Below, piece after piece: positions 4,806-60,890 of a stretch of 64,000 nt of DNA. A program made the position numbers and the translations under genes. The stretch is taken from IMG/VR virus record IMGVR_UViG_3300020057_000027, positions 1-64,000 of that record. One strand, written 5' to 3'. Numbering within the stretch: position 1 is the first letter of the stretch; the number at the start of each line of letters is the position of its first letter. The notes below the pieces were generated by a model. It saw only the letters and a list, made by a program, of their open reading frames with translations. It did not search any database and was not told the DNA's origin. This DNA comes from a virus.

Positions 4806-5552
4806 ATGGACGTCATTTTTTCAATTTATCGTATTACTAATCTTTCTAATGAAAGAAAATATATTGGCCTGACACAACAAACGCCGCCACGTAAAAGGTG
4901 GGACCAACACAAATCACCTAAGGGACCACAACAAAAAGCAAAACCACTACACAGGGCTATTTTAAAACACGGTAAAGTTAATTTTAAATTTGAAATACTA
5001 TGTCAAACAAAAAATTTGGATCATGCAAAGGAATTAGAAAAGTATTTTATTAAAATATCTAATAGTTTAGCAAATGGTGGTTGGGGATATAATCTCACTG
5101 ATGGTGGTGATGGTGGTATTTGGGGCTATAAATTTTCGGATGAACAGAAAAAACAAATGTCCGAATCAGCCAAGAAAAGATGGACACCAGAAGAAAGAAA
5201 AAAATACTCTGAAATGCAAAAGGGTAAAATACAATCACCCGAATCTAATAGAAAGAGATCGGAAAAACTAAAAGGTATATCCACAAGGGGCTCAGGTTGG
5301 TCTATGTCAATAGAGCATAAACAAGCAATATCAGATGCCATGATGCACCATAAAAAATCTGACGCATTCAAAGAAAAGACTAGAGCAAGAATGTCCAAAC
5401 AATGGAGTCTTACATCGCCAGAGGGAATTATTCACAGAATAACCAATCTCACCAAGTTCTGTCGGGAACATAACCTATCTACCCAAAACCTCTGGAAAGT
5501 ATCTAAAGGTATTATTTCACAGAGCCAGGGCTGGAAATGCAAATCTCTTTAA
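4806..5552 (+). CDS. GIY-YIG homing endonuclease, Seg-like
   Basis: A 248-residue free-standing endonuclease. The N-terminal GIY-YIG domain shows IYRITN...KYIGLT (residues ~7-22) and an expected Glu in the E-L-E-K-Y-F-I helix. It is followed by two NUMOD3-type DNA-binding repeats (around residues 112-128 and 170-185) and a C-terminal helix-turn-helix tail (N-L-T-K-F-C-R-E-H-N-L). Such enzymes cut the allele lacking them and spread by gene conversion. It sits just after the gp23 terminator, so the target is probably gp23-flanking DNA. No strong ribosome site is visible, typical of poorly expressed mobile genes. Confidence 0.9.
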   Translation: MDVIFSIYRITNLSNERKYIGLTQQTPPRKRWDQHKSPKGPQQKAKPLHRAILKHGKVNFKFEILCQTKNLDHAKELEKYFIKISNSLANGGWGYNLTDGGDGGIWGYKFSDEQKKQMSESAKKRWTPEERKKYSEMQKGKIQSPESNRKRSEKLKGISTRGSGWSMSIEHKQAISDAMMHHKKSDAFKEKTRARMSKQWSLTSPEGIIHRITNLTKFCREHNLSTQNLWKVSKGIISQSQGWKCKSL

Positions 5553-8074: not shown

Positions 8075-8317
8075 ATGGATTTTGATGAGTTCGCTAGACT
8101 TAAAACGCCACACTTGGTTGCTTTCAGTTTCTCAGTTTTGATCGTTGGTCTTACTGTGGCTTATGGGATATTCGCTTTTACGCACCGCCTAAATAACACT
8201 AGCGAGTGTAATTGTGGGATAAGCGAAAAGTCTAATGGAACATCTATCGATCAAAAAGATCAACCAAGTCTACGTAAGGGTAGAGACTTCTTCTGGAGTG
8301 ATCCAGGAGCTTTCTGA
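8075..8317 (+). CDS. Small single-pass membrane protein overlapping uvsW
   Basis: An 80-residue protein with one clear membrane span (A-F-S-F-S-V-L-I-V-G-L-T-V-A-Y-G-I-F-A-F, residues ~17-36). The ATG at 8075 lies two bases after the uvsY stop; an upstream start inside uvsY (8042) is less likely. Its 3' end overlaps the uvsW start by 83 bases in another frame. T4 also has small genes between uvsY and uvsW. Function unknown. Confidence 0.55.
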   Translation: MDFDEFARLKTPHLVAFSFSVLIVGLTVAYGIFAFTHRLNNTSECNCGISEKSNGTSIDQKDQPSLRKGRDFFWSDPGAF

Positions 8318-10778
8318 ATTTTTTAAATTTAGAGTCCCAGGCTATCAGTTCATGCCAGCGTACAAGATGCGTACCTGGGATGGTTATATTCGCTTATTCA
8401 ATACTATGGATTGGAGTCTATACGCAGGCTTAATTCATTACCTAAAAGTATTCTGTGATGCTAGAGATTATACTTTAGATATCGATCCAGAAATAGAAGA
8501 GATAACTCCTTTCACATTAGAAGATACAAATAGCCTAACTAAACGGCTTAAATTACCCTTTGATGCTCGTGACTATCAACTCAGTGCGATACACTACGCT
8601 GTGAAGCACAGGAGAGCTTTATTAGTGTCTCCTACAGGGTGTCACGTCGCAGGAACTAAGGTCATACAATACGACGGTTCTTGTAAAACTGTGGAAAACC
8701 TACAAGTCGGTGACTTGTTAATGGGACCCGATAATTATCCAAGAACGGTATTAAAGACTATTAAAGGATACGGAAAAATATATAAAATTGCATGTGGTGG
8801 ACGCAAAAGTAACAAATTTAAAAGTTTTGAAGTTAATGGGGAACATATTTTAAGTTTGGTTCATACGTCGAAAGAGAATATAATTAATATTTCAGTGGAA
8901 GATTACATTAAGAAAAGTAAACATTGGAGACACTGCCATAAACTGTACTGGAATGACAAATGTATTGCATTCAATAATGATAATAAAACTCTCTTAGTTG
9001 ATCCATATATTGTTGGTGCCTATCTCGGAGATGGGCATTCGCGCACCCCTGCACTTACCTCGAAAGATAATGAGCTAATTGAACACTTTGCTGATTATGT
9101 TAAGATGGAATTCCATATCACACCAACCATCAAAACAAACAGGAGTAATTGTCGAACGATACGATTTTCTGATATAAAAAACACCACCCGTAGTAGCCCA
9201 AATAAATTCACGGATGCTTTCAGAAAGATTGGAATTGATATCGGTGGCTCTTTAACCTGTGGTAATAAGTATATTCCTGACGTATACAAAACATCATCTA
9301 TTTCTAGTAGATTGCAACTCTTAGCAGGATTAATAGATACGGACGGGTATTTAAGTAAAACCAAAACTTATTATTCATATACATCTAAATCCAAACAACT
9401 GGTCGAAGACGTAGCATTTGTGGCAAGAAGTTTGGGGTTTTTTGTAAAAATCAAAAGCGGATTAAAGTGTGCCACAAATACCATCGCAAAAATTAAGAGA
9501 ATATATTGGTCGTGTTCAATTATTGGAAATATATCTATTATTCCGTGTAAGTTAGATAGAAAAAAGGCAATAGTAGATAACCCAAACAAAAAACACAACC
9601 GACACTGTTTTACAGTGGAAGATGTTGGTAACAATACGTTTTATGGTATGCAGTTAGATGGGGATCATTTATATTTTCTAGGTGATTGGTGTGTAACCCA
9701 CAACTCAGGCAAAAGCCTAATCATCTATTCCCTAGCTAGACATTACAACAAAAAGACTTTGATTATCGTTCCAACAATATCGTTGGTATCTCAGATGATA
9801 TCAGACTTTAGAGACTATGCTAAGAAAGATCCAAAGTTTGATGTTGATAAAATGTGCCACCCTATTTTCTCAGGTCAAGATAAGACAACTAAGAAACCTA
9901 TCGTGGTTTCTACGTGGCAATCGATCTATAAAATGCCAAAAGAATACTTCAAAGATTTTGATGTTGTGATTGGTGATGAGGTTCACCAATTCAAAGCAAA
10001 CTCAATGAAAGGTATAATGGAGAAACTTGTAAATACTACTTACAGGTTCGGCACTACAGGTACACTTGATGGCACACAAACACATAAGCTAGTGCTTGAA
10101 GGTTTGTTTGGCCCAGTCTTCAAAGTTACTACAACCAAAACATTGATGGATAAAAAGCAATTAGCAGAATTAAATATTAAATGTTTAATATTGAAATACT
10201 CTGAAGAGACTTGTAAAGCAAATAAAATTCTGAAGTATCAAGATGAAATCAAATATCTTATTCTAAACAAGAAGCGTAATTTGTTTATTCGCAATCTAGC
10301 AGTAAGCATGAAATCTAATACGCTTATATTATTCCAATTCATAAGTCATGGTAAAGTTTTATATGACTCAATTAAAAAGAAAGTTGAAGAGACTACTCCA
10401 AATAGAAAGGTGTTTTTTGTCTCTGGTGCTACTGAAGGTGAAGTAAGAGAACAGATCAGAAAGATTACTGATAAACAGAAAGATGCGATCATCGTTGCTT
10501 CAAGTGGTGTATTCAGTACAGGTATTAATATAAAGAATCTTGATAACATCATATTCGCTTCGCCTACAAAATCAAGAATTAAAACATTACAGAGTATTGG
10601 CAGAGCATTACGTATTGGTGATTCAGATAAAGCAACACTATATGATATCGTTGATGATATGATACACAAGCAACATAAAAACTTTGCTATCAAACACTTT
10701 CTTGAAAGAGTTAAAATATACAACGCTGAGAAGTTCAAGTACAAGCTCCATCAAATAGATTTGGAGCCCACTAAATAA
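8235..10778 (+). CDS. uvsW: UvsW recombination helicase precursor with intein
   Basis: An 847-residue precursor; without its 355-residue intein the helicase is 492 residues (T4 UvsW 502). The N-terminal domain matches T4 UvsW (G-Y-x-F-x-P-x-x-x-x-x-x-W-D-G-x-I-R-L). The SF2 helicase motifs follow: Walker A SPTG^SGKS (interrupted by the intein), a DEVH-type Walker B (G-D-E-V-H-Q), T-T-G-T motif III, and motif VI Q-S-I-G-R-A-L-R. UvsW unwinds R-loops and branched DNA, shutting off origin replication and promoting recombination-dependent replication. The start is internal to the preceding membrane-protein gene but is supported by the conserved N-terminal residues. Confidence 0.94.
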   Translation: MEHLSIKKINQVYVRVETSSGVIQELSEFFKFRVPGYQFMPAYKMRTWDGYIRLFNTMDWSLYAGLIHYLKVFCDARDYTLDIDPEIEEITPFTLEDTNSLTKRLKLPFDARDYQLSAIHYAVKHRRALLVSPTGCHVAGTKVIQYDGSCKTVENLQVGDLLMGPDNYPRTVLKTIKGYGKIYKIACGGRKSNKFKSFEVNGEHILSLVHTSKENIINISVEDYIKKSKHWRHCHKLYWNDKCIAFNNDNKTLLVDPYIVGAYLGDGHSRTPALTSKDNELIEHFADYVKMEFHITPTIKTNRSNCRTIRFSDIKNTTRSSPNKFTDAFRKIGIDIGGSLTCGNKYIPDVYKTSSISSRLQLLAGLIDTDGYLSKTKTYYSYTSKSKQLVEDVAFVARSLGFFVKIKSGLKCATNTIAKIKRIYWSCSIIGNISIIPCKLDRKKAIVDNPNKKHNRHCFTVEDVGNNTFYGMQLDGDHLYFLGDWCVTHNSGKSLIIYSLARHYNKKTLIIVPTISLVSQMISDFRDYAKKDPKFDVDKMCHPIFSGQDKTTKKPIVVSTWQSIYKMPKEYFKDFDVVIGDEVHQFKANSMKGIMEKLVNTTYRFGTTGTLDGTQTHKLVLEGLFGPVFKVTTTKTLMDKKQLAELNIKCLILKYSEETCKANKILKYQDEIKYLILNKKRNLFIRNLAVSMKSNTLILFQFISHGKVLYDSIKKKVEETTPNRKVFFVSGATEGEVREQIRKITDKQKDAIIVASSGVFSTGINIKNLDNIIFASPTKSRIKTLQSIGRALRIGDSDKATLYDIVDDMIHKQHKNFAIKHFLERVKIYNAEKFKYKLHQIDLEPTK
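8640..9704 (+). other. Intein in UvsW Walker A, with LAGLIDADG endonuclease
   Basis: Residues 136-490 of the precursor. The intein starts at Cys (CHVAGTKVIQYDG), ends in H-N, and the +1 extein residue is Ser, so excision restores SPTG-SGKS. It contains two LAGLIDADG helices (V-G-A-Y-L-G-D-G and L-A-G-L-I-D-T-D-G), the catalytic parts of a homing endonuclease, and terminal splicing blocks including W-C-V-T-H-N. It looks intact and mobile. Insertion in a P-loop is typical because the target DNA is conserved. Confidence 0.95.
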
Positions 10779-28301: not shown

Positions 28302-30833
28302 ATGAGTGAAAAATTCTACACAAATTGTTCCGTCATTGGAAACACTATTCTTTATCGTGGTATAGAGAACGGTGAAAGAATAAAAGAGCGAGTGCAGTTT
28401 AAACCTAAACTGTTTCTTCCAACAAATAAACCATCAAAATATAAAACGCTTGATGGTCAAGCTTGTGATAAGATTGAATTCGGTGATATCAAAGAAGCAA
28501 GAGATTTTGTAAAACAATATTCTGATGTTGATGGATTTAAGTTCTTTGGTAATACTCGTTGGGTATATGTTTATCTTTCGGATAGATTTCCTAATGTAGT
28601 TGAGTTTGATCCAACTAAGATCGTTGTCGCAAATATAGATATTGAGGTCGCTTCAGAAAACGGTTTTGCTCCTGTAGAAAATCCAACAGAAGAGATTACT
28701 GCAATCACAATCAAAGCTCACGGAAGGTTTTATGTTTTTGGTTGTGGTATCTTTGAAACAGATAGAGAAGATGTTAAGTATATCAAGTCACGCAATGAAC
28801 CTGAGATGCTCAGAAAGTTTATTGAGTTCTGGGAAACTCTTGCTCCAGATGTAGTTACTGGTTGGAATTGTCTGCCGCTCAATAGTTTTGTTTACACTAA
28901 TAACTCAATTAAAAAACTTAAAAATCTTTATAATAAAGAAATTTTAAATATTGATAATAATGTTACAAATTTATATCCAAAAAGCACCAAAAGAATTTGG
29001 GAGATAAATTTAGCCACTGGTCAAAAAATATCCTCTTCAGGTGAACATAAATTTTTTACTTGTAAACCGAAAGTTCCATATCAGAATATCACTCAAATGT
29101 TAAAAGCCGGAATTTGGACAGAATCTAAAAATATTGACAAAGAATCATTCCTGGTTATTCCAAAACATAAAAATATAAACCAAACAACAGTAGAAGATTT
29201 AGATTTGTTTTATGTTTTAGGGATGCTATTTACCGACGGCACTAAACAGGGTAAGGCCGCCGCAATTTACAACACTAAAGATGAAATTATAAATCGCGTT
29301 GCATTATTTACACAAAAACATAAAATCGCTAACCATGCAAGCAAAAGCGGAATATCACTCAGTCATAGACCGTGTAAAAGAGTTAGAATGTGGCTAAGAG
29401 ATGACCACATTCTTAGCCAGTATATTCATTTAATTTATAACGATGACAAAAAAGAATTAAATGTTGAAGAATTGTCAAAACTATCCAAAGAAGAATTTGA
29501 GTATTTTTTATCGGGTTTAATAGACGGCGACGGTTCCGTTGGTAAAAATGGTAAAATTAGTTTTTGTAATTATAATGATCAAATATCAAACTTAAATGAA
29601 TTGTTGTTATGGAATGGAATTATATCTAGTGGATTTACAGCAAATAGACTTTATATTTCTAAAAGGTGTGAAGTCAATTTAAAACTGTCACATCCAATAA
29701 AAAAATCTCGATTGCTTTCCGCCGACATGAATTTTTTTAGAGCAAAATCCGCTCCAAATAAAATTGCCAAAATATTAGAAAACGATGATTGTTATTTGGT
29801 TAAAGTTAAATCAGTTGTAGAAACTTCTGAATATACCGAAATGATGGATATAGAAACATCAACGCACGAATTTATTGTAAGTGGCGTTAAAACTCACAAT
29901 TGCACCTTTTACGATATACCTTATATTGTTAACAGAATATCCAGAGTGTTTAGTGACAAAGAAGCAAAAAGGCTTTCTCCTTGGGGATTTTTGTCCACTA
30001 GGTCATCTAACTATAAAGGTAAACAACATCAAGTTGTAGAGATAGTTGGTATCAGTACATTAGACTATATTGAATTGTATAGAAAGTTTGGTGCTAGACA
30101 AGAGAGTGAGAAATTAAATTACGTTGCATATGCCGAGCTAGGTGAGAAAAAGATTTCTTATACTGAATTTGGTAGTTTGCACGAACTATATAAGCATGAC
30201 TATCAAAAGTTTATTGAGTATAACATCAAAGACGTTGATCTAGTTGATAAGCTTGAACAGAAGCTCCAGTTGATCAACATGAGTTTTGCAATGGCATTTG
30301 ATGCTAAGGTAAACTTTTCTGATGTGTTCACACAAACAAGAATGTGGGATGCTATCATCTTTGATTACGTTAAAAAGAAAGACTTAGTATTACCACAGGT
30401 TAAAGAGACAGCAAAAGATGAACAGTACGCTGGAGGCTATGTTAAAGAGATTACTCCTGGGATGTATGATTGGGTTTTATCATTCGATCTTAACTCTCTA
30501 TATCCTAACCTAATTGCACAGTTTAATATTTCACCTGAGATGTTAATCCAAGAACAGGTAGACACAGAAACTTTTAGAAAGAAGTCTACTGAAGAGGGTA
30601 TCAAGTATGATATATCTCCACTGCTGGATAAGAAACTTGATCTATCACATTTAAAAGATAAGAACATAACAATGGCAGCAAACGGATATGCTTTTCTAAA
30701 AGAGAAGCAAGGTTTTCTTCCAGATATATTGATGCGTATGTATGAAGATAGAAAGATGTATAAGAAGAAAATGATTGAAGCTCAAAAAGATCTTGAGCTA
30801 GTTAAAGAAGAAATGCGTAGACGTGGAATATAA
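28302..30833 (+). CDS. 43A: DNA polymerase gp43, N-terminal part (gp43A), with intein
   Basis: An 843-residue precursor; without the 344-residue intein it is 499 residues and covers the N-terminal domain, the 3'-5' exonuclease (Exo I N-I-D-I-E-V-A-S; Exo II G-W-N^C-T-F-Y-D-I-P; Exo III Y-N-I-K-D-V-D) and the palm up to Pol motif II (F-D-L-N-S-L-Y-P). It ends in the fingers after Y-E-D-R-K-M-Y-K-K-K-M. The remaining motifs are in gp43B at 32955, 2.1 kb away. Together the exteins total 868 residues (T4 gp43 898). Split gp43 genes are known in some T4-like phages and the halves associate. The ATG has no ribosome site and sits at a predicted transcript start. Confidence 0.95.
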   Translation: MSEKFYTNCSVIGNTILYRGIENGERIKERVQFKPKLFLPTNKPSKYKTLDGQACDKIEFGDIKEARDFVKQYSDVDGFKFFGNTRWVYVYLSDRFPNVVEFDPTKIVVANIDIEVASENGFAPVENPTEEITAITIKAHGRFYVFGCGIFETDREDVKYIKSRNEPEMLRKFIEFWETLAPDVVTGWNCLPLNSFVYTNNSIKKLKNLYNKEILNIDNNVTNLYPKSTKRIWEINLATGQKISSSGEHKFFTCKPKVPYQNITQMLKAGIWTESKNIDKESFLVIPKHKNINQTTVEDLDLFYVLGMLFTDGTKQGKAAAIYNTKDEIINRVALFTQKHKIANHASKSGISLSHRPCKRVRMWLRDDHILSQYIHLIYNDDKKELNVEELSKLSKEEFEYFLSGLIDGDGSVGKNGKISFCNYNDQISNLNELLLWNGIISSGFTANRLYISKRCEVNLKLSHPIKKSRLLSADMNFFRAKSAPNKIAKILENDDCYLVKVKSVVETSEYTEMMDIETSTHEFIVSGVKTHNCTFYDIPYIVNRISRVFSDKEAKRLSPWGFLSTRSSNYKGKQHQVVEIVGISTLDYIELYRKFGARQESEKLNYVAYAELGEKKISYTEFGSLHELYKHDYQKFIEYNIKDVDLVDKLEQKLQLINMSFAMAFDAKVNFSDVFTQTRMWDAIIFDYVKKKDLVLPQVKETAKDEQYAGGYVKEITPGMYDWVLSFDLNSLYPNLIAQFNISPEMLIQEQVDTETFRKKSTEEGIKYDISPLLDKKLDLSHLKDKNITMAANGYAFLKEKQGFLPDILMRMYEDRKMYKKKMIEAQKDLELVKEEMRRRGI
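28869..29900 (+). other. Intein in gp43 exonuclease motif, with LAGLIDADG endonuclease
   Basis: Residues 190-533 of gp43A. It begins CLPLNSFVYTNN, ends T-H-N, with Cys as +1 residue, restoring G-W-N-C-T-F-Y-D-I-P. LAGLIDADG helices are L-G-M-L-F-T-D-G and L-S-G-L-I-D-G-D-G. The fold appears complete. The codons are more AT-rich than the flanking polymerase sequence. Confidence 0.93.
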
Positions 30834-35260: not shown

Positions 35261-35603
35261 AATAAAAGAAAAATATAAAATCAAATATGATCCTAATGAT
35301 AAGGCTAGATGGTTTGTTCAGCTAACAGATCTAGCTGGAGTCTTTGCTGGCGTGATGTATGGTTATGGAGCATTTAGAATTAAAGAGCCAGAAAGTCCAG
35401 ATGGTAATTTGATGTTTAGTTTTGAACGAGATATTCTATACGTACCAGAAGGCCTGAAAGGTAAAGAGTTATCAGATGATCAAGAAAAAGAATTTACTAT
35501 ATTGCTTGGCTCAATACTATATGATATACTACAAGACAACCTCAATAAAGTTTCAGAACGAGGCGATAAGCTAGTCTTGGAGTTAGAGTCTAATGATAAA
35601 TGA
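35250..35603 (+). CDS. Hypothetical 117-aa protein (GTG start)
   Basis: A 117-residue protein starting at GTG 35250, which has an AGGAAA ribosome site. It has a central hydrophobic but not clearly membrane-spanning stretch (L-A-G-V-F-A-G-V-M-Y-G-Y-G) and an acidic C-terminal helix. It overlaps both neighbours by about 11 bases in the uvsX-41 operon. No domain is recognised. Confidence 0.5.
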   Translation: MTVEIKEKYKIKYDPNDKARWFVQLTDLAGVFAGVMYGYGAFRIKEPESPDGNLMFSFERDILYVPEGLKGKELSDDQEKEFTILLGSILYDILQDNLNKVSERGDKLVLELESNDK

Positions 35604-36951
35604 TAGAGTTGAAATATTAATCATAAAGAATTTATTCTTTAATGAACCATATACAAGAGAAGTTCTTCCTTTTATAATGCCTGAATATTTTTCTGATGAA
35701 GCTGAAAGAACGCTTGTCACAAAAATAAAAACCTTTATAACTAATTTCAATCATCTTCCTACTCGTGAAGCTATTATCATTCAGGTATCTAATGATACAA
35801 AACTATCACAACCAACAGAAGATAAAATTAGAGAGATTGTTTCTAATTTAAATAATGATGAGAAAAGTGATCCTAAATTCTTAATAGAAGAATCACAAAA
35901 GTTTTGCCAACAAAAAGCATTGGTAAATGCTGTATACAGTACAGTTGATATATTAGAAGACCCTAAGAAAGAGAAAGGTATAATTCCTAAACTACTTAGT
36001 GATGCACTTGCTGTATCCTTTGATCCGAGTGTTGGTCATAGTTATCTTGATGATGCTGATGCAAGATTTGAAACTTATCATAAAACAGAAGAGAAGTTTC
36101 CATTTGACCTATCATATTTTAATAAGATTACTAGGGGTGGTGTTCCAAGAAAGACTTTAAATGTTATTCTTGCTGGAACTGCTGTAGGTAAATCACTTGC
36201 AATGTGCCATATGGCAGGCTCATATTTAATGTCGGGCAAAGATGTTCTATACATTACACTTGAAATGGCACAAGAAAGAATAGCAGAACGTATTGATGCT
36301 AATCTATTGAACGTATCAATGCAGGATCTAGCATCATTACCTAAAGATCTTTATGATAAAAAGATTGCTGCTATTAAAAGTAAAACAGTTGGTAGATTTT
36401 TCATCAAAGAATATCCTACTGCCACAGCATCCGCAACAAACTTTAGAGCATTGTTAAATGAACTTGCATTAAAGAAATCTTTTAGACCTGATGTAATCTT
36501 TGTTGATTATCTGAACATCGCAACAAGTAGCCGACTAGGTAATAATCAAACGGTAAACTCATACACATATGTAAAGAGTATAGCAGAAGAACTTAGAGGT
36601 ATGGCAGTAGAGTTTAATGTTCCAATTTGGACTGCTACACAAACTAATCGCTGTCTAACATTAGATAGTAGCATTATAACTAAAAAAGGTACATTACCTT
36701 TAGGTGATATTAAAGTGGGAGATAGTGTGTTATCTGATGTTGGTTGGAATAATGTTTTGCGTGTGTATCCAATAGAAAAACAGAAAACATATCTTATCAA
36801 AACAAAGTCAGGTAAAACTATAAAATGTTCTGCTAGACATTTATTTCCTTCTAGCGGTGGTTTATTGTCTATTGATAGTGGTCTTAAAATCGGGGATGGT
36901 CTGCAAAACAGAGATGATAAAAAAAGTAATGAAAAATGGAATGTTTTTTGA
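35593..36951 (+). CDS. 41: Replicative helicase gp41 N-terminal part with N-intein
   Basis: A 452-residue protein: 353 residues of DnaB-like helicase followed by a 99-residue N-terminal half-intein. The helicase part has Walker A G-T-A-V-G-K-S (195-201), Y-I-T-L-E-M, and Walker B V-I-F-V-D-Y-L-N. It stops in T-A-T-Q-T-N-R, immediately followed by the intein Cys354. The C-terminal part of the helicase is in the next frame (36936). Joined exteins total 476 residues (T4 gp41 475), so nothing of the helicase is missing. gp41 is the hexameric 5'-3' fork helicase that works with primase gp61 (53058). Confidence 0.95.
   Translation: MINDRVEILIIKNLFFNEPYTREVLPFIMPEYFSDEAERTLVTKIKTFITNFNHLPTREAIIIQVSNDTKLSQPTEDKIREIVSNLNNDEKSDPKFLIEESQKFCQQKALVNAVYSTVDILEDPKKEKGIIPKLLSDALAVSFDPSVGHSYLDDADARFETYHKTEEKFPFDLSYFNKITRGGVPRKTLNVILAGTAVGKSLAMCHMAGSYLMSGKDVLYITLEMAQERIAERIDANLLNVSMQDLASLPKDLYDKKIAAIKSKTVGRFFIKEYPTATASATNFRALLNELALKKSFRPDVIFVDYLNIATSSRLGNNQTVNSYTYVKSIAEELRGMAVEFNVPIWTATQTNRCLTLDSSIITKKGTLPLGDIKVGDSVLSDVGWNNVLRVYPIEKQKTYLIKTKSGKTIKCSARHLFPSSGGLLSIDSGLKIGDGLQNRDDKKSNEKWNVF
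36652..36948 (+). other. Split intein, N half (gp41)
   Basis: Residues 354-452: CLTLDSSIITKKG (block A), L-P-L-G-D-I-K-V-G-D, T-I-K-C-S-A-R-H-L-F-P (block B with its His). No endonuclease domain is present. It ends at a TGA after T6. Layout and insertion point (N-R before Cys, Ser at +1) resemble the gp41-8 split intein known from aquatic metagenomes. Confidence 0.9.
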
Positions 36952-37073
36952 AAAAATGGATTTATATGTTTGATGAAATAGTAGAAATTGTTGAAATTGG
37001 ATACGAAGACGTTGTGGATATTGAAGTGTCCGGTAATAATTTATTTTATGCCAATGACATCTTAACGCATAAT
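36936..37073 (+). other. Split intein, C half (gp41)
   Basis: Residues 1-46 of the downstream gene: MECFLKKWIYMFDEIVEIVE..., then V-V-D-I-E-V-S-G-N-N-L-F-Y-A-N-D-I-L-T-H-N. Blocks F and G are intact, with terminal H-N and Ser at +1. Its length equals that of the gp41-8 C-intein, and it begins with its own Met, as expected for a true split intein. Confidence 0.9.
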
Positions 37074-37445
37074 TCAGGCTTTGTATCCACTGATATTGGA
37101 TTAGAAAACACCTCCGAGAGTTTTGGTTTACCGGCCACGGCAGATTTTATGGTTGCACTTTGGACTACAGAAGAGTTAGAAAAACTTGGACAAATAGTTG
37201 TAAAACAACTCAAAAACAGGTATAATGATGTAACAACATATAAAAAGTTTGTAGTTGGAATAGATCGATCTAAGATGAGATTATTTGATCTTGATGAAAG
37301 CGCACAAAAAGGTTTACAAGATTCTGGCACAGGCGATGACAAAGACGATGATGTTCCAGCATTTGATAAATCAAAATTTGGTAATGGGATGAAAGCAGAA
37401 AATAAAGTTTATGACAAGTCTAAATTCTCCGATGTTAATTTTTAG
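36936..37445 (+). CDS. 41: Replicative helicase gp41 C-terminal part with C-intein
   Basis: A 169-residue protein: a 46-residue C-terminal half-intein (ATG 36936) and 123 residues completing gp41, starting S-G-F-V-S-T-D and including V-K-Q-L-K-N-R-Y-N-D-V-T and V-G-I-D-R-S-K-M-R-L-F as in T4 gp41's end. The C-terminal ~50 residues are an acidic, Lys-rich tail. The frame overlaps the N part by 16 bases in the -1 frame, so expression probably depends on reinitiation. A second possible start is ATG 36966, which would shorten the C-intein to 36 residues. No strong ribosome site is visible. Confidence 0.93.
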   Translation: MECFLKKWIYMFDEIVEIVEIGYEDVVDIEVSGNNLFYANDILTHNSGFVSTDIGLENTSESFGLPATADFMVALWTTEELEKLGQIVVKQLKNRYNDVTTYKKFVVGIDRSKMRLFDLDESAQKGLQDSGTGDDKDDDVPAFDKSKFGNGMKAENKVYDKSKFSDVNF

Positions 37446-37983
37446 ATAACTTCTTTGCCATATATTTGTTAATATTTAATTGTCTACACGCCTCTCTAAT
37501 ACTTACATATTCTATATTGTTTATAGTAATTGGTTTTCTATTGGGTTGTAGCATTTGATTTCCTTTACTTTTGGATGATTTTTCTTTAAAAATTGTTTTT
37601 GTTTTTTTGGTATGTTTCTTTCCATAAAAGGGATTATTAATTCCTTTTCTTTGTTTACTTAATTTATCTTTCTGTTTTTGTGTCCAGCTTCTACCACAAG
37701 TTCCATCTCCACCTTCAGTTGAATTAAATCCACATTTGAATGTGTTGTATTTTTTAATATATTCTTTTTCCTTGTTTTTTGCTTCTATTTGTGTTAAACT
37801 ATCTTCTAATATGATAAAAGAAAATGAATCCCATCCATATTTGCCTATGGCATTAGATATGTGGGTATTGATGTGTTTATATGAATGTTTGTGCCAACAT
37901 TTTCTGGCTGTAGGATCTTTACTCAATCCTATATATTTACGTCCTGAAATAATATGTTCTAAACAATAGATAGACCAATTCAT
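37435..37983 (-). CDS. GIY-YIG homing endonuclease (only minus-strand gene)
   Basis: A 182-residue free-standing endonuclease on the opposite strand: I-Y-C-L-E-H-I-I-S-G-R-K-Y-I-G-L-S at residues ~5-21 is the GIY-YIG core, with E in K-E-K-E-Y-I-K-K. It is followed by a NUMOD3 repeat (K-G-I-N-N-P-F-Y-G-K-K-H-T) and a C-terminal helix-turn-helix segment (S-I-R-E-A-C-R-Q-L-N-I). It sits exactly between gp41 and dam: its stop overlaps the gp41 stop and its start codon abuts the dam ATG (CAT-ATG). Possibly it is the mobility factor of the adjacent split intein. Confidence 0.88.
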   Translation of the reverse strand: MNWSIYCLEHIISGRKYIGLSKDPTARKCWHKHSYKHINTHISNAIGKYGWDSFSFIILEDSLTQIEAKNKEKEYIKKYNTFKCGFNSTEGGDGTCGRSWTQKQKDKLSKQRKGINNPFYGKKHTKKTKTIFKEKSSKSKGNQMLQPNRKPITINNIEYVSIREACRQLNINKYMAKKLSKN

Positions 37984-54303: not shown

Positions 54304-55938
54304 ATGACTGATGAAGAACAGAAGACCAAACGACACGAAGCATTAACAAAACTAACACAGATGTCCCAAGATATGGGTTTATATGATACACCTGAAGACA
54401 GAATTGTCCGAGTCCTAGATAAAGGATTTGTTCGTCTAGTTGATAGTATGGGTAATGATAGTTCTATCGTACAAGCTGCCAGAGTTTCTTATGGAGAAGG
54501 CACTAAGAAAGTTAGTGAAGATGAAGGCCTCATTAGATATCTTCTAAGACATAGACATACTACACCAATGGAGATGGTTCAATTTAAGTTCCACGTTAAG
54601 GCGCCAATATTTGTTATTCGCCAATGGCACCGCCATAGAACTTGGTGTTTATCTGGAGATACCGAATTGTGGTATGATAGTCCTAGTTCAATCAGAGAAG
54701 GCACAAAAGGTAGAAATAAAATTACTATTGCAGATTTTTATGATAAATGGCACCACGGCGCCAAGCCTATTACTACACAAGATGGTATTATTATGAGAAT
54801 GCCATTAAAAAAATATTTAGAAAAAAGATCATTCAGGTGTTTGAATGAAGAAAATAAAACCATAGAACATACCAATATTACTGACGTATGGAAATCTGGC
54901 ATTAAACATATATTTGAAATTGAGTTAGAAAACGGATATAAAATAAAAACATCTCAAGATCATTTATTTTATACTGAAAATGGTTGGAAAAAATTAAAGG
55001 AGTTTGTTGGCATAAAAAATACAGATATTGTGTATTGGGATGATATTTCTCTTTATACTAACGGACAGTCAGTAAATTCTAGTTATTTTGAAAAAGGTAG
55101 TATTCCTTGGAATAATAATATAAAAATCCCACCAGAAGAAAAGAAAGCAAAATGTCATCGGGGTCATCACTTGGTAGGTAAACTAAGCAAAATTAAAAAA
55201 GTCTCTTATGTGGGACAGGAATATACCTATGATATCTCCGTTTCTGGTTCTTTTCATAATTTTATTGCTAATGGTTTTGTAGTCCATAATTCTTATAATG
55301 AAGAATCAGGAAGATATTCTGAAATGAAAAATGAATATTATGTTCCAGATCCCAGTAAAGTCACCTTTCAAAATCCTAATAATAAACAAGGCGGCACAGA
55401 TGATATCATAACACCTTTTAATATTAAGAATCCTGATGATTGGTGGGATTGTTTAACTCCAGAACAAATTGCTTCTACTTGGAACTGGCAGAAATATTTT
55501 GAAGACGAACAAAAATTAACTAGACATAATTATGAAAGATATTTGAATAGTGGAATGAGAAAAGAGTTAGCAAGAATTAATCTTCCTTTAGCTCAATATT
55601 CTCAGATGTATGGATGTGTAGATCTACATAATCTCTTCCACTTCTTGAAGTTGCGCCAAGATCCTCATGCACAATATGAGATTAGAGTTTATGCTGATGC
55701 GTTGCTTCAGTTAATCCAACCTATTGTTCCTGTGGCAGTTAAAGCATATGAAGATTATATTCTTAATTCTGTTACATTAACAGGTAAAGATATAGAAGCA
55801 TTGAAAGATGCACTACGTTCTGTGGATGAAAGTTTATTTTTTGGTAGTGCTATCGGCTCGGCCGCCAATACTGTTTTTTCCAATAAGAGAGAAAAAGATG
55901 AATTCCTAGCAAAAATTCAACGTCTAAAACATATATAG
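54304..55938 (+). CDS. thyX: Flavin-dependent thymidylate synthase ThyX with intein
   Basis: A 544-residue precursor; the mature enzyme is 329 residues. The ThyX signature R-H-R-x-x-S-x-N-E-x-S-x-R is interrupted: R-H-R-T-W, intein, [15 protein letters not shown] (FAD/dUMP contacts) and R-x-x-L-P-L-A-Q-Y-S are present. ThyX converts dUMP to dTMP with NADPH and methylene-folate, complementing dUTPase. It is longer than bacterial ThyX, with an ~80-residue insertion after the signature. GAGGAATA ribosome site. Confidence 0.94.
54646..55290 (+). other. Mini-intein in ThyX signature motif
   Basis: Residues 115-329 (215 residues): starts [12 protein letters not shown], has block B (K-T-S-Q-D-H-L-F), and ends F-V-V-H-N with Ser at +1. 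No LAGLIDADG helices; instead a segment with G-S-I-P-W-N-N-N and H-R-G-H-H looks like remnants of an HNH-type endonuclease. Probably splices but no longer homes. Confidence 0.9.
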
Positions 55939-55983: not shown

Positions 55984-57402
55984 ATGAAATCAAAAATTAG
56001 TTTTGTATTTGGATTAATATTTTCTGTTATTGTGTTGGGTGGAATTCTTACACGAAACAATTTTTTTCAATTCGCAGATACGGTAACTCCAGGTCAATCG
56101 GGATTTTTTGATCCTAATCATCCAACCAGAGTCGCATATAGAGAAACACGAGAAAGAAAACTTGTAAACGTTGGCCGCGCTCCATTTGCTATTGCTGCCA
56201 ATAAATTTGATTGTAAGTCTTTTGTTTCTTCATTAAAAGATTTAGATTTTGTGCATATTTCATGGCTTTTTAATACTTTCGGAACTAAGTATTCTTGTCT
56301 GAATAAAATCTTAGATGATCCAAGATTAATAACACTTCAAACTAATTTAATTAATGAGCCAGGACACAGAAACAGACGTTTAGAAAAACATGAGTTTCTG
56401 TATAATATTTCTAGTCCACAAAAATTTGATCAACTATTAAAATCTCGTAATCCAAAGCTTAAAGCACAGTTTGATAAGTATGTTGGGCCCCTTCAAGATC
56501 TTTTAGTTTCAAGACTTCAACCACAAACAGAATGTTTAATCAATCCTGGACTTGAAAGTAATGTTAGTAGCAGAGCCGCAAAAGTTTTAAATGAATGGGC
56601 AAGAGAAGCTTTTCCTTTCTGTAAAATCATTTGGAATCCAATAGCAAAAGCTAATACACCTGTAAATAGTGGTGCTGATCTTATAGAGCAACATGGCTGG
56701 GAACCAACATTCAAAACACATTCGTGTACTTTTAACAATGACGGTTCTGATATTAATTTTCCAGAGCGTAAAGCTGGATCAGCATTAGCACATGAAAAAG
56801 ATCCACTATCACCGAAAAATTATGTCAATTCTGGTAATGCTTTACAGTATGAAATACAAGAATATGCTAATCAATGCAAAGTAATCTATTTGTGGACTGT
56901 TGAAGATAATTGTTTTGCTTATGATAATGTAACTGCGCCTTGGGCACCTCCAACTAAAAGACCGTGTAAAGTAGGTCCAGTAAATAGATTGGTAGCAAAA
57001 GAAATAAAAACTGCTCATACGCAGAGAGAAGTTGAACCAAAAAGTTTTGAGTACACCGACGAAGAAGAAGCTGCCTTTGCTGGCTGCTCTGAGATTAGAA
57101 AGCCAAATGACGGCGCGAAAAAAGGTTTCTTATTAAAACAATCAGAATTTTCTGATCGTGGTGGTGCGTTGTTGTTACCTAGTAATCTTCGTGGTGTAGA
57201 TAGCGCAACAGTAGTATATAAAAATAAAAAAGTAGACTCATATAAATTCTCAGGAATTTATGGGCACGATAGCTCAGGTAGACCATTATGGAGAAGTGAT
57301 GTGTCTCCTTTGAAATATCCCTATCGTTCAACACTTATTTTGAAAGACGGTAATAAAAAAATTTGTTACCGCTTAAGTAATCCTAAAATTCGTAACGATT
57401 AG
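55984..57402 (+). CDS. Membrane-anchored or secreted protein, possible glycosidase-like
   Basis: A 472-residue protein with an N-terminal hydrophobic segment (residues ~5-22) that is a signal peptide or anchor. The remainder is extracytoplasmic by composition, with scattered Cys. Repeated alpha/beta elements (D-F-V-H-I-S-W-L-F, I-T-L-Q-T-N-L-I-N-E-P-G, E-C-L-I-N-P-G-L-E-S, C-K-I-I-W-N-P) suggest a TIM-barrel like glycoside hydrolases, and a C-terminal beta domain follows (~370-472). The function is not established; it could act on the cell envelope or be virion-attached. It has a ribosome site and a terminator after it. Confidence 0.5.
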   Translation: MKSKISFVFGLIFSVIVLGGILTRNNFFQFADTVTPGQSGFFDPNHPTRVAYRETRERKLVNVGRAPFAIAANKFDCKSFVSSLKDLDFVHISWLFNTFGTKYSCLNKILDDPRLITLQTNLINEPGHRNRRLEKHEFLYNISSPQKFDQLLKSRNPKLKAQFDKYVGPLQDLLVSRLQPQTECLINPGLESNVSSRAAKVLNEWAREAFPFCKIIWNPIAKANTPVNSGADLIEQHGWEPTFKTHSCTFNNDGSDINFPERKAGSALAHEKDPLSPKNYVNSGNALQYEIQEYANQCKVIYLWTVEDNCFAYDNVTAPWAPPTKRPCKVGPVNRLVAKEIKTAHTQREVEPKSFEYTDEEEAAFAGCSEIRKPNDGAKKGFLLKQSEFSDRGGALLLPSNLRGVDSATVVYKNKKVDSYKFSGIYGHDSSGRPLWRSDVSPLKYPYRSTLILKDGNKKICYRLSNPKIRND

Positions 57403-57515: not shown

Positions 57516-60149
57516 ATGCAGAATCTTCCCTCCTTGTATCAGGAATTCATCCATCTTTCACGCTATTCAAGATGGGTGCCAGAAGAAAAGCGAAGAGAGA
57601 CATGGGAAGAAACAGTAAAAAGATATTTTACATTCTTTGAAGTTCATCTTAAAGAACGCACAGGTTACGAATTAAAAAAATCTGATCGTAGCGAATTAGA
57701 AAAAGCAATTTTGGAATTAAAAGTGATGCCTTCAATGCGGTGTCTAATGACAGCAGGAGAAGCATTGAAGAGAGATGAAGCTGCCGGATATAATTGTTCA
57801 TTCATAGCAATAGACAATCCAAGATCATTTGATGAAATACTTTATATTTTAAGCTGTGGAACAGGAGTAGGTTTTTCCGTTGAAAGACAGTATGTTAGCC
57901 AACTACCTGTAATTGCTGAATCGTTCTATGGGACGGATAGCACAATAGTAGTACAAGATAGCAGAATAGGGTGGGCTAAAGCTCTTAAAGAGCTTCTAGG
58001 GTTGTTATATCAGGGTCAGATACCACAGATAGACACTAGCAAGGTAAGACCGGCAGGAGCGGTCCTAAAGACCTTTGGAGGTCGTGCTAGTGGTCCCCAG
58101 CCGCTAATAGAGCTATTTAACTTCTGTATACGAGTTTTTCGTAGTGCTAGTGGTCGTAAGTTGCAGTCTATAGAATGTCACGATATTGTATGCAAGATCG
58201 CGGAGGTTATCGTGGTGGGCGGCGTGAGACGTTCTGCCCTTATCTCATTGAGTAATCTATCAGATGATAGAATGAGAAATGCTAAATCAGGACAATGGTG
58301 GGTTGAAAATGTTCAAAGAGCTTTGGCTAATAATTCTGCTTGTTATACTGAAAAGCCTGATGTTGCTGTTTTCATGGATGAGTGGAAATCTCTTTATGAA
58401 TCTCGTAGCGGTGAGAGAGGAATATTCAATCTTGTTGCTGCGAAGAAATCAGCAGAAGCAGGAGGCAGAAGAGATCCTTTAAAAGTTGCTGGAACAAATC
58501 CGTGTGTTCCGGGGGACACAAGAATATTAACTAAAGACGGCTATGTTGAAATTGCCAAAACGGTCGGTAAAGAAGTGGAAATTTGGAATGGGCTTGAGTG
58601 GTCGGTAGTAAGGCCATTTAGCACAGGCATCAACGACTTGATGGAAATAACATTTTCAGATGGTAGTAATTTAAAATGTACTCCGTATCACAAATTTGTT
58701 TTAGATGATGGGAGAACAAAAAGCAAGATAGTCAAAAGGAAGGAAAAAAGGGTCGAAGCAAAAGATCTAAAACTTAACGACCGACTATTTAAATATAATA
58801 TGCCCGCCGTCAAGTTGTCTGATGCAATAGATCCGACAATCGATGCTTACTCGCAAGGATTTTATTCTGGTGATGGGTGTAGTGATAATACATCCTCATA
58901 TCTATATGAAACAAAATATTCATGCGAACCCCGCCTAAAAGGCAATTTTGGAAAACTTGAATCTAATAGAAAACGATGGGTGCATGGGGCGATGTTGCCA
59001 AAAACGTTTGTTCCGTTAAATTCGTCTTTGGTATATTGTCTAAATTGGTTTGCTGGTTTGTGTGATTCTGATGGTACTGTGACGAGAGATATTAACAGTT
59101 CCGGTATACAGATTTGTTCGGTCGACCTTGAGTTTCTTAAAGATACAAAATTAATGCTGTCGAGATTATCAGTAAAAGCTAAAATTGTCGATGGTAGAGA
59201 AGAAGGCACTTATACTATCGCTACAGGCACGTATGTTTGCAAAAAACAATACCGCATATTAGTTGGTAACGCCGACACGGCAAAATTAATCTCGTTGGGG
59301 TTAAAAACGGAAAGATTAGTATTTGATAAAATTAAACCACAAAGAGATGCGCGACGTTTTATTACCGTGGTTGCTGTGAAAAACTTAGACAAAAAACAAG
59401 AAACTTTTTGCTTTACGGAGCCAAAAAATAATACAGGGACCTTTGAGGGTATAGTAACAGGGCAGTGTGCCGAGATACTCTTGCGTAATCGAGGCTTTTG
59501 TAACTTATCTGAAGTAGTAGTAAGAGCAGATGACACAAAAGAAAGTTTATTAAAAAAAGTTGAGTTGGCAACAATATTAGGAACGTTTCAATCAACGCTA
59601 ACTAAGTTCCGATATCTTACTAAAGATTGGGAAAAAAATGCAGAAGAAGAAAGATTACTTGGCGTTTCTTTAACTGGCATATTAGATAATGAATTTTTAT
59701 CTACTCCAAGTCCAGAATTACAAACGTTTTTAGAAGAATTAAAAGATCACGCAATTAAAGTAAATAAAAAATGGGCCACAAAATTGGGCATTCCACAATC
59801 TGTGGCAATTACTTGCGTGAAGCCTAGTGGATGTCAAAGTTTGTCGAATAAAATTAAAACCAATTTGGGTGTTCTTTCCTTCGAGGAAATTTTGGATCTA
59901 TGTAAAGTTAAAACTACATTTGCCGACACATGGCATCCCGTAAATATAGACTTATCGGTATTTGATGAAAATAACGAATCGCAGAAGGTTACAAAACTTT
60001 TCATCAACGGAGAGGCTTTGGTGCATGAAATTGAGTTTGAAGATGGCACCACGGCAAAATTCACGTCAAACCATAAACTTTTAACAAAAGATCGTGGTTA
60101 TGTCAGAGTTGACGAATTAAAACCAGAAGATGATATAGTTTCTTTTTAA
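57516..60149 (+). CDS. nrdJ: Class II ribonucleotide reductase NrdJ, N-terminal part, with inteins
   Basis: An 877-residue precursor: extein 1 (1-329), intein 1 (330-650), extein 2 (651-772) and a split-intein N half (773-877). The extein is a monomeric B12-dependent reductase: A-G-Y-N-C-S-F-I, S-C-G-T-G-V-G-F-S and, after splicing, N-P-C-A-E-I containing the thiyl-radical Cys, then C-V-K-P-S-G. The rest is at 60228. Joined exteins are 636 residues, within the range of phage NrdJ. It makes dNTPs from NTPs without oxygen, needs adenosylcobalamin, and feeds replication with ThyX and dUTPase. No nrdB-like gene is seen. Confidence 0.93.
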   Translation: MQNLPSLYQEFIHLSRYSRWVPEEKRRETWEETVKRYFTFFEVHLKERTGYELKKSDRSELEKAILELKVMPSMRCLMTAGEALKRDEAAGYNCSFIAIDNPRSFDEILYILSCGTGVGFSVERQYVSQLPVIAESFYGTDSTIVVQDSRIGWAKALKELLGLLYQGQIPQIDTSKVRPAGAVLKTFGGRASGPQPLIELFNFCIRVFRSASGRKLQSIECHDIVCKIAEVIVVGGVRRSALISLSNLSDDRMRNAKSGQWWVENVQRALANNSACYTEKPDVAVFMDEWKSLYESRSGERGIFNLVAAKKSAEAGGRRDPLKVAGTNPCVPGDTRILTKDGYVEIAKTVGKEVEIWNGLEWSVVRPFSTGINDLMEITFSDGSNLKCTPYHKFVLDDGRTKSKIVKRKEKRVEAKDLKLNDRLFKYNMPAVKLSDAIDPTIDAYSQGFYSGDGCSDNTSSYLYETKYSCEPRLKGNFGKLESNRKRWVHGAMLPKTFVPLNSSLVYCLNWFAGLCDSDGTVTRDINSSGIQICSVDLEFLKDTKLMLSRLSVKAKIVDGREEGTYTIATGTYVCKKQYRILVGNADTAKLISLGLKTERLVFDKIKPQRDARRFITVVAVKNLDKKQETFCFTEPKNNTGTFEGIVTGQCAEILLRNRGFCNLSEVVVRADDTKESLLKKVELATILGTFQSTLTKFRYLTKDWEKNAEEERLLGVSLTGILDNEFLSTPSPELQTFLEELKDHAIKVNKKWATKLGIPQSVAITCVKPSGCQSLSNKIKTNLGVLSFEEILDLCKVKTTFADTWHPVNIDLSVFDENNESQKVTKLFINGEALVHEIEFEDGTTAKFTSNHKLLTKDRGYVRVDELKPEDDIVSF
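58503..59465 (+). other. Intein 1 in NrdJ, with LAGLIDADG endonuclease
   Basis: Residues 330-650: starts CVPGDTRILTKDG, has S-Q-G-F-Y-S-G-D-G and F-A-G-L-C-D-S-D-G as endonuclease helices, and ends I-V-T-G-Q. The final residue is Gln and the penultimate is Gly, not the usual His-Asn. The +1 residue is the reductase's catalytic Cys. Confidence 0.9.
59832..60146 (+). other. Split intein, N half (NrdJ intein 2)
   Basis: Residues 773-877: starts CQSLSNKIKTNLG after K-P-S-G, has block B (T-A-K-F-T-S-N-H-K-L-L-T-K-D-R-G-Y-V-R-V-D-E-L) and ends at a stop. No endonuclease domain. It resembles N halves of NrdJ/NrdA split inteins from aquatic metagenomes. Confidence 0.9.
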
Positions 60150-60227
60150 ATACACACCAAAAATGCAGAAAATAGAAAGTTTTGAAGAATTTTTAGAAAA
60201 AAACAAACAATTCCGTAGGGGTAGAAT
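60150..60227 (+). other. Gap between NrdJ split-intein halves
   Basis: 78 bases carrying a 22-codon frame (60163-60231, MQKIESFEEFLEK...) that ends overlapping the next ATG. It may be a coupling leader or the last trace of a lost mobile endonuclease. A GGGGT ribosome site precedes ATG 60228. Confidence 0.4.
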
Positions 60228-60332
60228 ATGAAAATAAAATCAATAAAAATTGCTGGCATAGAATTAACGGGAGATGTTGAGGTGGCGAACACACATTCGT
60301 ATCAGTTAGAAAATGGATGCGTCTCTCATAAC
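60228..60332 (+). other. Split intein, C half (NrdJ intein 2)
   Basis: Residues 1-35 ending N-T-H-S-Y-Q-L-E-N-G-C-V-S-H-N, with Thr as +1 residue. Blocks F and G are intact; short size and its own Met mark a genuine C half of a split intein. Confidence 0.9.
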
Positions 60333-60890
60333 ACAGTTTCACAATTGGCGGACAGCGCATCTGGGATTCATGCAAGACATTCTCCATATTACATTCGCAC
60401 CGTTAGATCTGATATAAAAGATCCATTATGCAAACTGATGAAAGAAATGGGTTTTCCTAATGAGCCAGACGTAACAAAACCTGAACACACTGTTATATTT
60501 TCTTTTCCGGTTAAGGCACCCGATAATTCAATATTCAGATACGATTTAAACGCAATTCAACATTTAGAGTTGTGGTTATTTTATAAAAAATTCTGGGCCG
60601 AGCATACCGTATCAATTACCGTATCAGTAAAAGATAGCGAATGGTTTGACGTTGCCGCATATGTTTATAAACATTTTGATGACATATCTGGAATTTCATT
60701 TTTGCCATTTAGTGATCACGTTTATAAACAAGCGCCATATCAAGATTGCTCCAAAGAAGAATATCAGGCGCTCGTAAATAAAATGCCACAAAACGTAGAT
60801 TGGTCCAAACTTAAAGAATTTGAATCCATAGATAATACTACCAGTTCACAGGAATTGGCGTGCGTTGCCGGTAATTGCGAAATATTATAA
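60228..60890 (+). CDS. nrdJ: Class II ribonucleotide reductase NrdJ, C-terminal part with C-intein
   Basis: A 220-residue protein: a 35-residue C-intein (MKIKSIKIAGIELTG...) followed by 185 residues completing NrdJ. The extein starts T-V-S-Q-L-A-D-S-A-S-G-I-H-A-R-H-S-P-Y-Y, the normal continuation of K-P-S-G. It ends with the redox pair C-V-A-G-N-C, which re-reduces the active site. Trans-splicing with the N half is required for a complete enzyme. A GGGGT ribosome site precedes the ATG. Confidence 0.93.
   Translation: MKIKSIKIAGIELTGDVEVANTHSYQLENGCVSHNTVSQLADSASGIHARHSPYYIRTVRSDIKDPLCKLMKEMGFPNEPDVTKPEHTVIFSFPVKAPDNSIFRYDLNAIQHLELWLFYKKFWAEHTVSITVSVKDSEWFDVAAYVYKHFDDISGISFLPFSDHVYKQAPYQDCSKEEYQALVNKMPQNVDWSKLKEFESIDNTTSSQELACVAGNCEIL

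What the first reader, a model, noticed from the sequence alone, without database searches (positions are those of the whole stretch)
57516..60890. Ribonucleotide reductase interrupted by one mobile intein and one split intein
Intein 1 sits directly before the thiyl-radical Cys, which doubles as the +1 splicing nucleophile. Intein 2 is split at K-P-S-G^T, so the enzyme exists only after cis-splicing plus trans-splicing. dNTP synthesis is therefore conditional on two splicing events, which could act as a maturation switch.
Basis: partly seen in the sequence, partly recalled or inferred. Interest (0 to 1): 0.78.

Follow-up and report, generated by a model that had tools for sequence, protein, structure and literature searches.

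The report
Split-intein phage reductase with endonuclease fossil
A phage's DNA-building-block enzyme is encoded in two separate genes with one self-removing insert inside the first and a second insert cut in half between them, and the short gap between the halves still holds the worn-down tail of the selfish cutting enzyme that once sat there, so this is most likely a record of parasitic gene invasion rather than a built-in on/off switch.

Summary
At 57516-60890 a tailed phage (164-kb record) encodes a class II, B12-type ribonucleotide reductase in three exteins (329+122+185 = 636 aa). A contiguous LAGLIDADG intein lies directly before the thiyl Cys (C408 of 1L1L), and a split intein lies at KPSG|T. 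No second reductase was found in the record.

The proposed "maturation switch" is not supported; both inserts look like mobile passengers. A phage identical over the next 4.5 kb (L017) lacks intein 1; the only six differences downstream lie within 30 bp of the site, and upstream identity is 80%, a co-conversion signature. Two other phage contigs (L085/L082, >99.8% identical) differ by a precise 516-bp copy of the split intein.

About 25 further phage RNR lineages carry this split intein at this site. Most have an HNH, GIY-YIG or Vsr-like endonuclease gene between the halves: the "fractured gene" arrangement. The window's 78-bp gap is a fossil of one: its frame matches the C-terminal tail of all 15 HNH/GIY-YIG enzymes (z 7-15) and none of the four Vsr types. 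It carries the Shine-Dalgarno-like site of the second half. Splicing itself is inferred. A new member of a known kind, within an unusually complete decay series.

The parts
57516..58502 (+). N-extein of class II RNR (329 aa; holds the C119-equivalent in GYNC)
58503..59465 (+). intein 1, contiguous, 321 aa, LAGLIDADG motifs QGFYSGDG and WFAGLCDSDG, last residue Gln, +1 Cys
   Evidence: intein_Nterm 38 bits, LAGLIDADG_3, motifs, relatives L088-L098 all in RNRs at the same site
59466..59831 (+). middle extein, 122 aa, starts with thiyl Cys (C408 equivalent), contains C419 equivalent, ends KPSG
59474..59495 (+). the only six differences to L017 in 4,535 bp (all third codon positions): likely 3' co-conversion tract of intein 1
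59832..60149 (+). IntN half of intein 2 (105 aa, C1, block B T-x-N-H) and stop
   Evidence: PF14890; alignments A1/A3; AF2 model pLDDT 84.6, best fold match NrdJ-1
60145..60231 (+). fossil of the C-terminal tail of a homing endonuclease (FKYTPKMQKIESFEEFLEKNKQFRRGRI, TGA overlapping the IntC ATG); overlaps the IntN end in another frame
   Evidence: score 47-86, z 7-15 against all 15 HNH/GIY-YIG endonucleases in the same gap of relatives; control maximum 38 in 576 ORFs
60217..60221 (+). AGGGG, Shine-Dalgarno-like site of the IntC gene, 6 nt before its ATG, inside the fossil
   Evidence: anti-SD duplex -6.5 kcal/mol (best ~5% of background); the fossil's own ATG has none
60228..60332 (+). IntC half of intein 2 (35 aa, ...EVANTHSYQLENGCVSHN)
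   Evidence: TIGR01443 over cut-off; alignment A4
60333..60890 (+). C-extein, 185 aa, +1 Thr, C-terminal CX4C pair (ACVAGNCEIL), and stop
   Evidence: omega 0.07 against uninterrupted L018

Best explanation
A phage adenosylcobalamin-type (class II) reductase gene invaded at two active-site motifs by mobile inteins. Intein 1 (LAGLIDADG) sits before the thiyl Cys and splices in cis. Intein 2 is a split intein at the substrate-phosphate loop KPSG|T; its halves are translated from neighbouring genes and should splice in trans, giving one 636-aa enzyme. Shown from sequence: boundaries, conserved splicing residues, purifying selection on both intein halves in relatives and on the last extein of the window, exact presence/absence of intein 1 in a near-identical phage and of the intein-2 family in another near-identical pair, and an endonuclease relic in the gap. 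Inferred: an HNH or GIY-YIG homing-endonuclease gene once lay between the halves (a 'fractured gene', as relatives still show); it was deleted down to its last ~28 codons; that stretch may have stayed because it carries the ribosome-binding site and stop/start overlap for the second half; splicing occurs and is efficient.
For: Architecture. Same split at the same site in about 25 phage RNR lineages, with HNH, GIY-YIG or Vsr-like ORFs between the halves in most, and short gaps in the window, L110/111, L112, L123, L134. Fossil. Independent parallel: L134 has a 69-nt gap with the same tail while sister intein L131 keeps the full GIY-YIG gene (intein 92% identical). Precise empty site: L085 vs L082, 516-bp cassette, with differences clustered next to it. 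L017 lacks intein 1 with co-converted flanks. Selection: omega 0.07 for IntN+IntC in L131/L134 and L111/L112; 0.067 for the window's last extein vs L018. Conflicting starred forks in intein and extein trees.
Against: No splicing experiment. All comparisons rest on metagenome contigs; L017 and L082/L085 could in principle be strain mixtures, though an 80%-to-100% identity switch at the site is hard to make by misassembly. The window's own intein 2 is a long branch (identity up to 55%), so selection on it is measured only against distant relatives (omega ~0.29, near saturation). The spliced protein scores 303.6 bits against TIGR02505, under its 340-bit cut-off.
Confidence: 0.87

Rival explanations
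1. Maturation switch: the two splicing events gate dNTP synthesis, for example by redox state.
For: Both inteins use Cys at step 1 and intein 1 also uses the thiyl Cys as +1 residue; conditional splicing under oxidative stress is known for a mycobacterial DnaB intein (PMC6195587).
Against: Intein 1, and the intein-2 family in another phage, are absent in near-identical phages; most RNR relatives are uninterrupted; intein 2 uses Thr at +1; inteins move between RNRs independently of the exteins. A conserved switch should not be optional.
Confidence: 0.05
2. Gene in pieces without ligation: the two chains fold together and work as a complex, as in phage Aeh1 NrdA, and intein 2 no longer splices.
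For: A split NrdA of phage Aeh1 is active without joining (PMC2988022, PMC10448857).
Against: All splicing residues are kept (C1, block B T/H, H-N, +1 Thr), intein halves of HEG-less relatives evolve at omega 0.07, and the split lies in the substrate-phosphate loop, where a free 105-aa IntN tail would be hard to tolerate.
Confidence: 0.06
3. Dead gene: the reductase is a decaying pseudogene.
For: Two interruptions and internal stops between the halves.
Against: Both ORFs open; active-site Cys set intact; last extein at omega 0.067 against L018; gap, IntN and IntC identical in L017; ribosome-binding site for the second half.
Confidence: 0.02

Closest known systems
'Fractured genes' with split inteins (Dassa et al. 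2009, NAR 37:2560; paper not held here, known from memory and from citations in PMC3653736 and PMC10448857)
   Same: Phage DNA-metabolism gene, including nrdA and nrdJ, broken by a split intein, usually with a free-standing endonuclease between the halves; half of theirs Vsr-like (from memory). Relatives L087, L100, L106, L114-L119 and others show this arrangement at the same site.
   Different: In the window the endonuclease is gone except for its C-terminal tail; I could not check whether the KPSG|T site is among the 2009 loci.
NrdJ-1 split intein (PDB 8ubs)
   Same: Split intein of a class II RNR, similar split point; best fold match to the IntN model, sequence match E 6e-6.
   Different: NrdJ-1 (from memory) sits at TNPC|S, after the thiyl Cys; L113 and L138 carry NrdJ-1-like split inteins at that place in addition to one at KPSG.
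gp41-1 split intein (PDB 6qaz)
   Same: Natural split intein of a phage helicase; the split DnaB intein of this same record belongs to it (E 4e-27).
   Different: Other host gene; not detected by intein 2 in the PDB sequence search.
RNR inteins at NP|C (e.g. phage and bacterial RIR1 / NrdA / NrdE inteins)
   Same: Intein 1 shares the site, LAGLIDADG core and in several cases the C-terminal Gln (L088-L098).
   Different: Nothing essential.

Membership tests
class II (AdoCbl-dependent) monomeric RTPR | catalytic Cys set: C119, C408, C419 equivalents and C-terminal Cys pair | tested here: met
   GTNPC aligned to 404-408 and FC to 418-419 of 1L1L, GYNC in the C119 region, CX4C at the C-terminus by eye
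class II (AdoCbl-dependent) monomeric RTPR | score over the curated cut-off of TIGR02505 after joining exteins | tested here: inconclusive
   303.6 bits, E 2.5e-90, best family by far, but cut-off 340; ~60% identity to phage RNRs annotated as RTPR
class 1 intein (intein 1) | C1, block A/B, C-terminal Asn/Gln and Cys/Ser/Thr +1 | tested here: met
   TIGR01445 over cut-off; Gln end shared with relatives
mobile (homing) intein (intein 1) | LAGLIDADG core and occupied/empty site with co-conversion | tested here: met
   PF14528; L017 comparison; endonuclease activity not tested
split intein (intein 2) | N and C halves on separate genes with all splicing motifs | tested here: met
split intein (intein 2) | trans-splicing activity | not testable with these tools
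   needs co-expression
fractured gene (split intein + free-standing endonuclease in the gap) | intact endonuclease gene between the halves | tested here: not met
   78-nt gap; only a ~28-codon relic of an endonuclease C-terminus. It appears to descend from this arrangement but is not an intact example

The most novel reading that the evidence does not exclude
Fractured genes carry a ratchet: the last codons of the endonuclease double as the translation-initiation region of the second gene half, so when the endonuclease is lost its tail must stay. This would explain why two independent losses (window, L134) kept the same ~20-28 codons and why the gene stays split, with only one re-fused case seen (L120).
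Probability: 0.35. Interest if true: 0.6.

Novelty: new member of a known kind. Interest (0 to 1): 0.5.

Why it matters
One insertion site in one enzyme family shows the stages expected for a gene broken by a selfish element: empty site (L082), halves with an intact endonuclease of three kinds (HNH, GIY-YIG, Vsr-like), a broken endonuclease (L101-L105), loss down to a fossil tail (this window, L134), tiny gaps (L112, L123) and re-fusion (L120). This makes the question of how split inteins arise and persist directly testable, and it supplies about 25 natural split-intein pairs with Thr or Ser at +1, apparently uncharacterised. The phage also shows how much interruption an essential pathway tolerates: seven inteins, two of them split, in 164 kb.

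Tried and rejected
Stop-codon reassignment or read-through across the gap: rejected, the frame holds several stops including TAA, TGA and TAG, and relatives carry whole genes there. Hidden endonuclease in the gap: only a relic. Contiguous bacterial ancestor of intein 2: a scan of 84,980 species genomes found none with this query (pattern-limited). Annotated phages: 29 records match IntN, none above about 31% identity over its full length. Vsr-type origin of the fossil: rejected (z below 2). The two free GIY-YIG genes of the record as source of the fossil: neither shows the tail. Dassa et al. 2009 could not be read. Fold search of the IntN half alone gives only weak E-values and low TM-scores (best 5e-3), although the top hits are all inteins.

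Full report
WHAT IS THERE. The window is bases 1-64000 of a 164,106-bp virus record with tailed-phage genes (scaffold, major head, UvsW, SbcC-like, B-family polymerase, DnaB). ORF 57516-60149 and ORF 60228-60890 together encode a B12-type class II ribonucleotide reductase (TIGR02505). Joining the three exteins gives 636 aa, which aligns to the L. leichmannii enzyme 1L1L with GTNPC at 404-408, FC at 418-419 and KPSGT at 548-552. Intein 1 (58503-59465) lies directly before the Cys equivalent to C408. Intein 2 is split: IntN 59832-60146, a 78-nt gap after its stop with further in-frame stops, IntC 60228-60332. From general knowledge of RNRs, KPSGT is the substrate-phosphate loop, so both inserts sit in active-site motifs. 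No other reductase was found in the record.

INTEIN 1 IS A MOBILE RNR INTEIN, AND A RECENT ARRIVAL OR LOSS IS VISIBLE. Its relatives in IMG/VR lie in RNR genes at the same site, several also ending in Gln (the weakest hit, L099, lies in another gene). It has both LAGLIDADG motifs. Contig L017 (IMGVR_UViG_3300015360_002498) is identical to the window over the whole 4.5 kb downstream except six synonymous differences at 59474-59495, within 30 bp of the insertion site. It lacks the intein, and upstream of the site it is only 80% identical over the 227 bp available. An insert with a short co-converted flank on one side and a longer one on the other is what double-strand-break repair during homing leaves (co-conversion reviewed in PMC2988022). 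Loss by recombination with an empty allele would look similar.

INTEIN 2 BELONGS TO A FAMILY OF SPLIT INTEINS AT ONE SITE. Scans with IntN profiles and an HMM classification found the same split intein at KP[SAE]G|T in about 20 distinct phage RNR lineages, and at a site two residues further on (KPSGN[AS]|S) in four more. The halves are split in all but one. C1, T-x-N-H of block B and the TH.YQL.NG..SHN end are conserved with few exceptions. Between the halves lie HNH genes (L100, L114, L121, L124-L127, L139), GIY-YIG genes (L115-L119, L131, L132; broken in L101-L105), Vsr/EDxHD-like genes (L087, L106, L122, L135) or almost nothing (window, L110/L111, L112, L123, L134). L120 has the halves fused in frame with an internal Met kept. 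In the pair L085/L082, >99.8% identical over 11 kb, the complete 516-bp cassette is present in one and absent in the other, with four of the differences within about 10 bp of the site. Intein and extein trees conflict at well-supported forks (L122 with L139 by intein but with L115 by extein; L119 likewise), so the element moves between phages.

THE GAP IS A FOSSIL. The frame 60145-60231 reads FKYTPKMQKIESFEEFLEKNKQFRRGRI and ends in a TGA that overlaps the ATG of IntC. It matches the C-terminal region of all 15 HNH and GIY-YIG endonucleases found in the same gap of relatives (local scores 47-86, z 7-15 over shuffles), none of four Vsr-type ones, and exceeds the best of 576 ORFs of the record (38). 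L114, L124, L127, L131 and L139 have the same stop/start overlap. L134 shows the same kind of loss independently: its 69-nt gap reads QEEISIEQFLIENKQFKKGRLK in the same place, while the sister intein L131 (92% identical) still has the whole GIY-YIG gene. Because both nuclease classes share this tail, the type of the lost enzyme cannot be told. The tail carries the AGGGG six bases before the IntC start (duplex energy -6.5 kcal/mol, about the best 5% of background), a possible reason for its retention. That reason is inference.

FUNCTION. Both intein halves evolve under strong purifying selection where measurable (omega 0.07 for L131/L134 and L111/L112, including HEG-less members). For the window's own intein only distant comparison is possible (0.29, near saturation). 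The window's last extein evolves at omega 0.067 against uninterrupted L018. I conclude that the two gene products most likely splice in trans, with intein 1 splicing in cis. Splicing was not tested.

THE SWITCH IDEA. Intein 1 is optional in a near-identical phage, the intein-2 family is optional in another near-identical pair, and the gap is a relic of a selfish gene. A switch is not needed to explain anything here. Conditional splicing is known elsewhere (PMC6195587) and remains possible.

KNOWN OR NEW. Split RNR genes, phage RNR inteins and fractured genes with split inteins are known (PMC3653736 cites two nrdJ and seven nrdA cases in ocean data; Dassa et al. 2009, not readable here, is known to me from memory). 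NrdJ-1 (8ubs) is the closest solved relative by fold search and among the closest by sequence. New here, as far as I could check: this HEG-less member with an endonuclease fossil, and the series of states at one site.

Noticed in passing
35593-37445: DnaB-type helicase is split by a gp41-1-family split intein (IntN from about 36652 to 36951; IntC gene starting at 36936 or 36969...DILTHN|S); second natural split intein of the phage. PDB 6qaz E 4e-27.
   Followed up: partly
37435-37983, minus strand: Free-standing GIY-YIG gene abutting the split helicase gene end to end, a candidate for homing in cooperation with the DnaB split intein.
   Followed up: partly
54646-55290: ThyX (54304-55938) carries a contiguous intein in its RHRxxS motif ([10 protein letters not shown]...VVHN|S), so two dNTP-synthesis enzymes of the phage need protein splicing.
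   Followed up: partly
8235-10778 and 28302-30833: UvsW-like helicase (intein of about 350 aa before its SGKS Walker motif, Hom_end domains) and B-family DNA polymerase (intein before THN|C at about 29892) are also interrupted.
   Followed up: partly
L012:9587-11695 (record 153587-155695): Putative portal protein with a contiguous mini-intein (REG|CLSLN...FVMN|SQG), an unusual structural-gene host for an intein; seventh intein of the record.
   Followed up: no
L113:1445-5203 and L138:818-4770: Phage class II RNRs with three inteins each, two of them split (NrdJ-1-like at TNPC| and this family at KPSG|) plus a contiguous one at the C419 site (L113) or C119 site (L138): the enzyme would need three polypeptides, two trans- and one cis-splice.
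   Followed up: partly
L087:1-930: RecA/UvsX C-terminal half begins with an apparent IntC (...NNHN|TTSGG), a further split-intein gene in the same phage contig.
   Followed up: no
55984-57402: 472-aa ORF with signal-peptide-like start between ThyX and RNR, no family match in Pfam or NCBIfam.
   Followed up: no
4806-5552: Free-standing GIY-YIG endonuclease gene directly after the major head gene.
   Followed up: no
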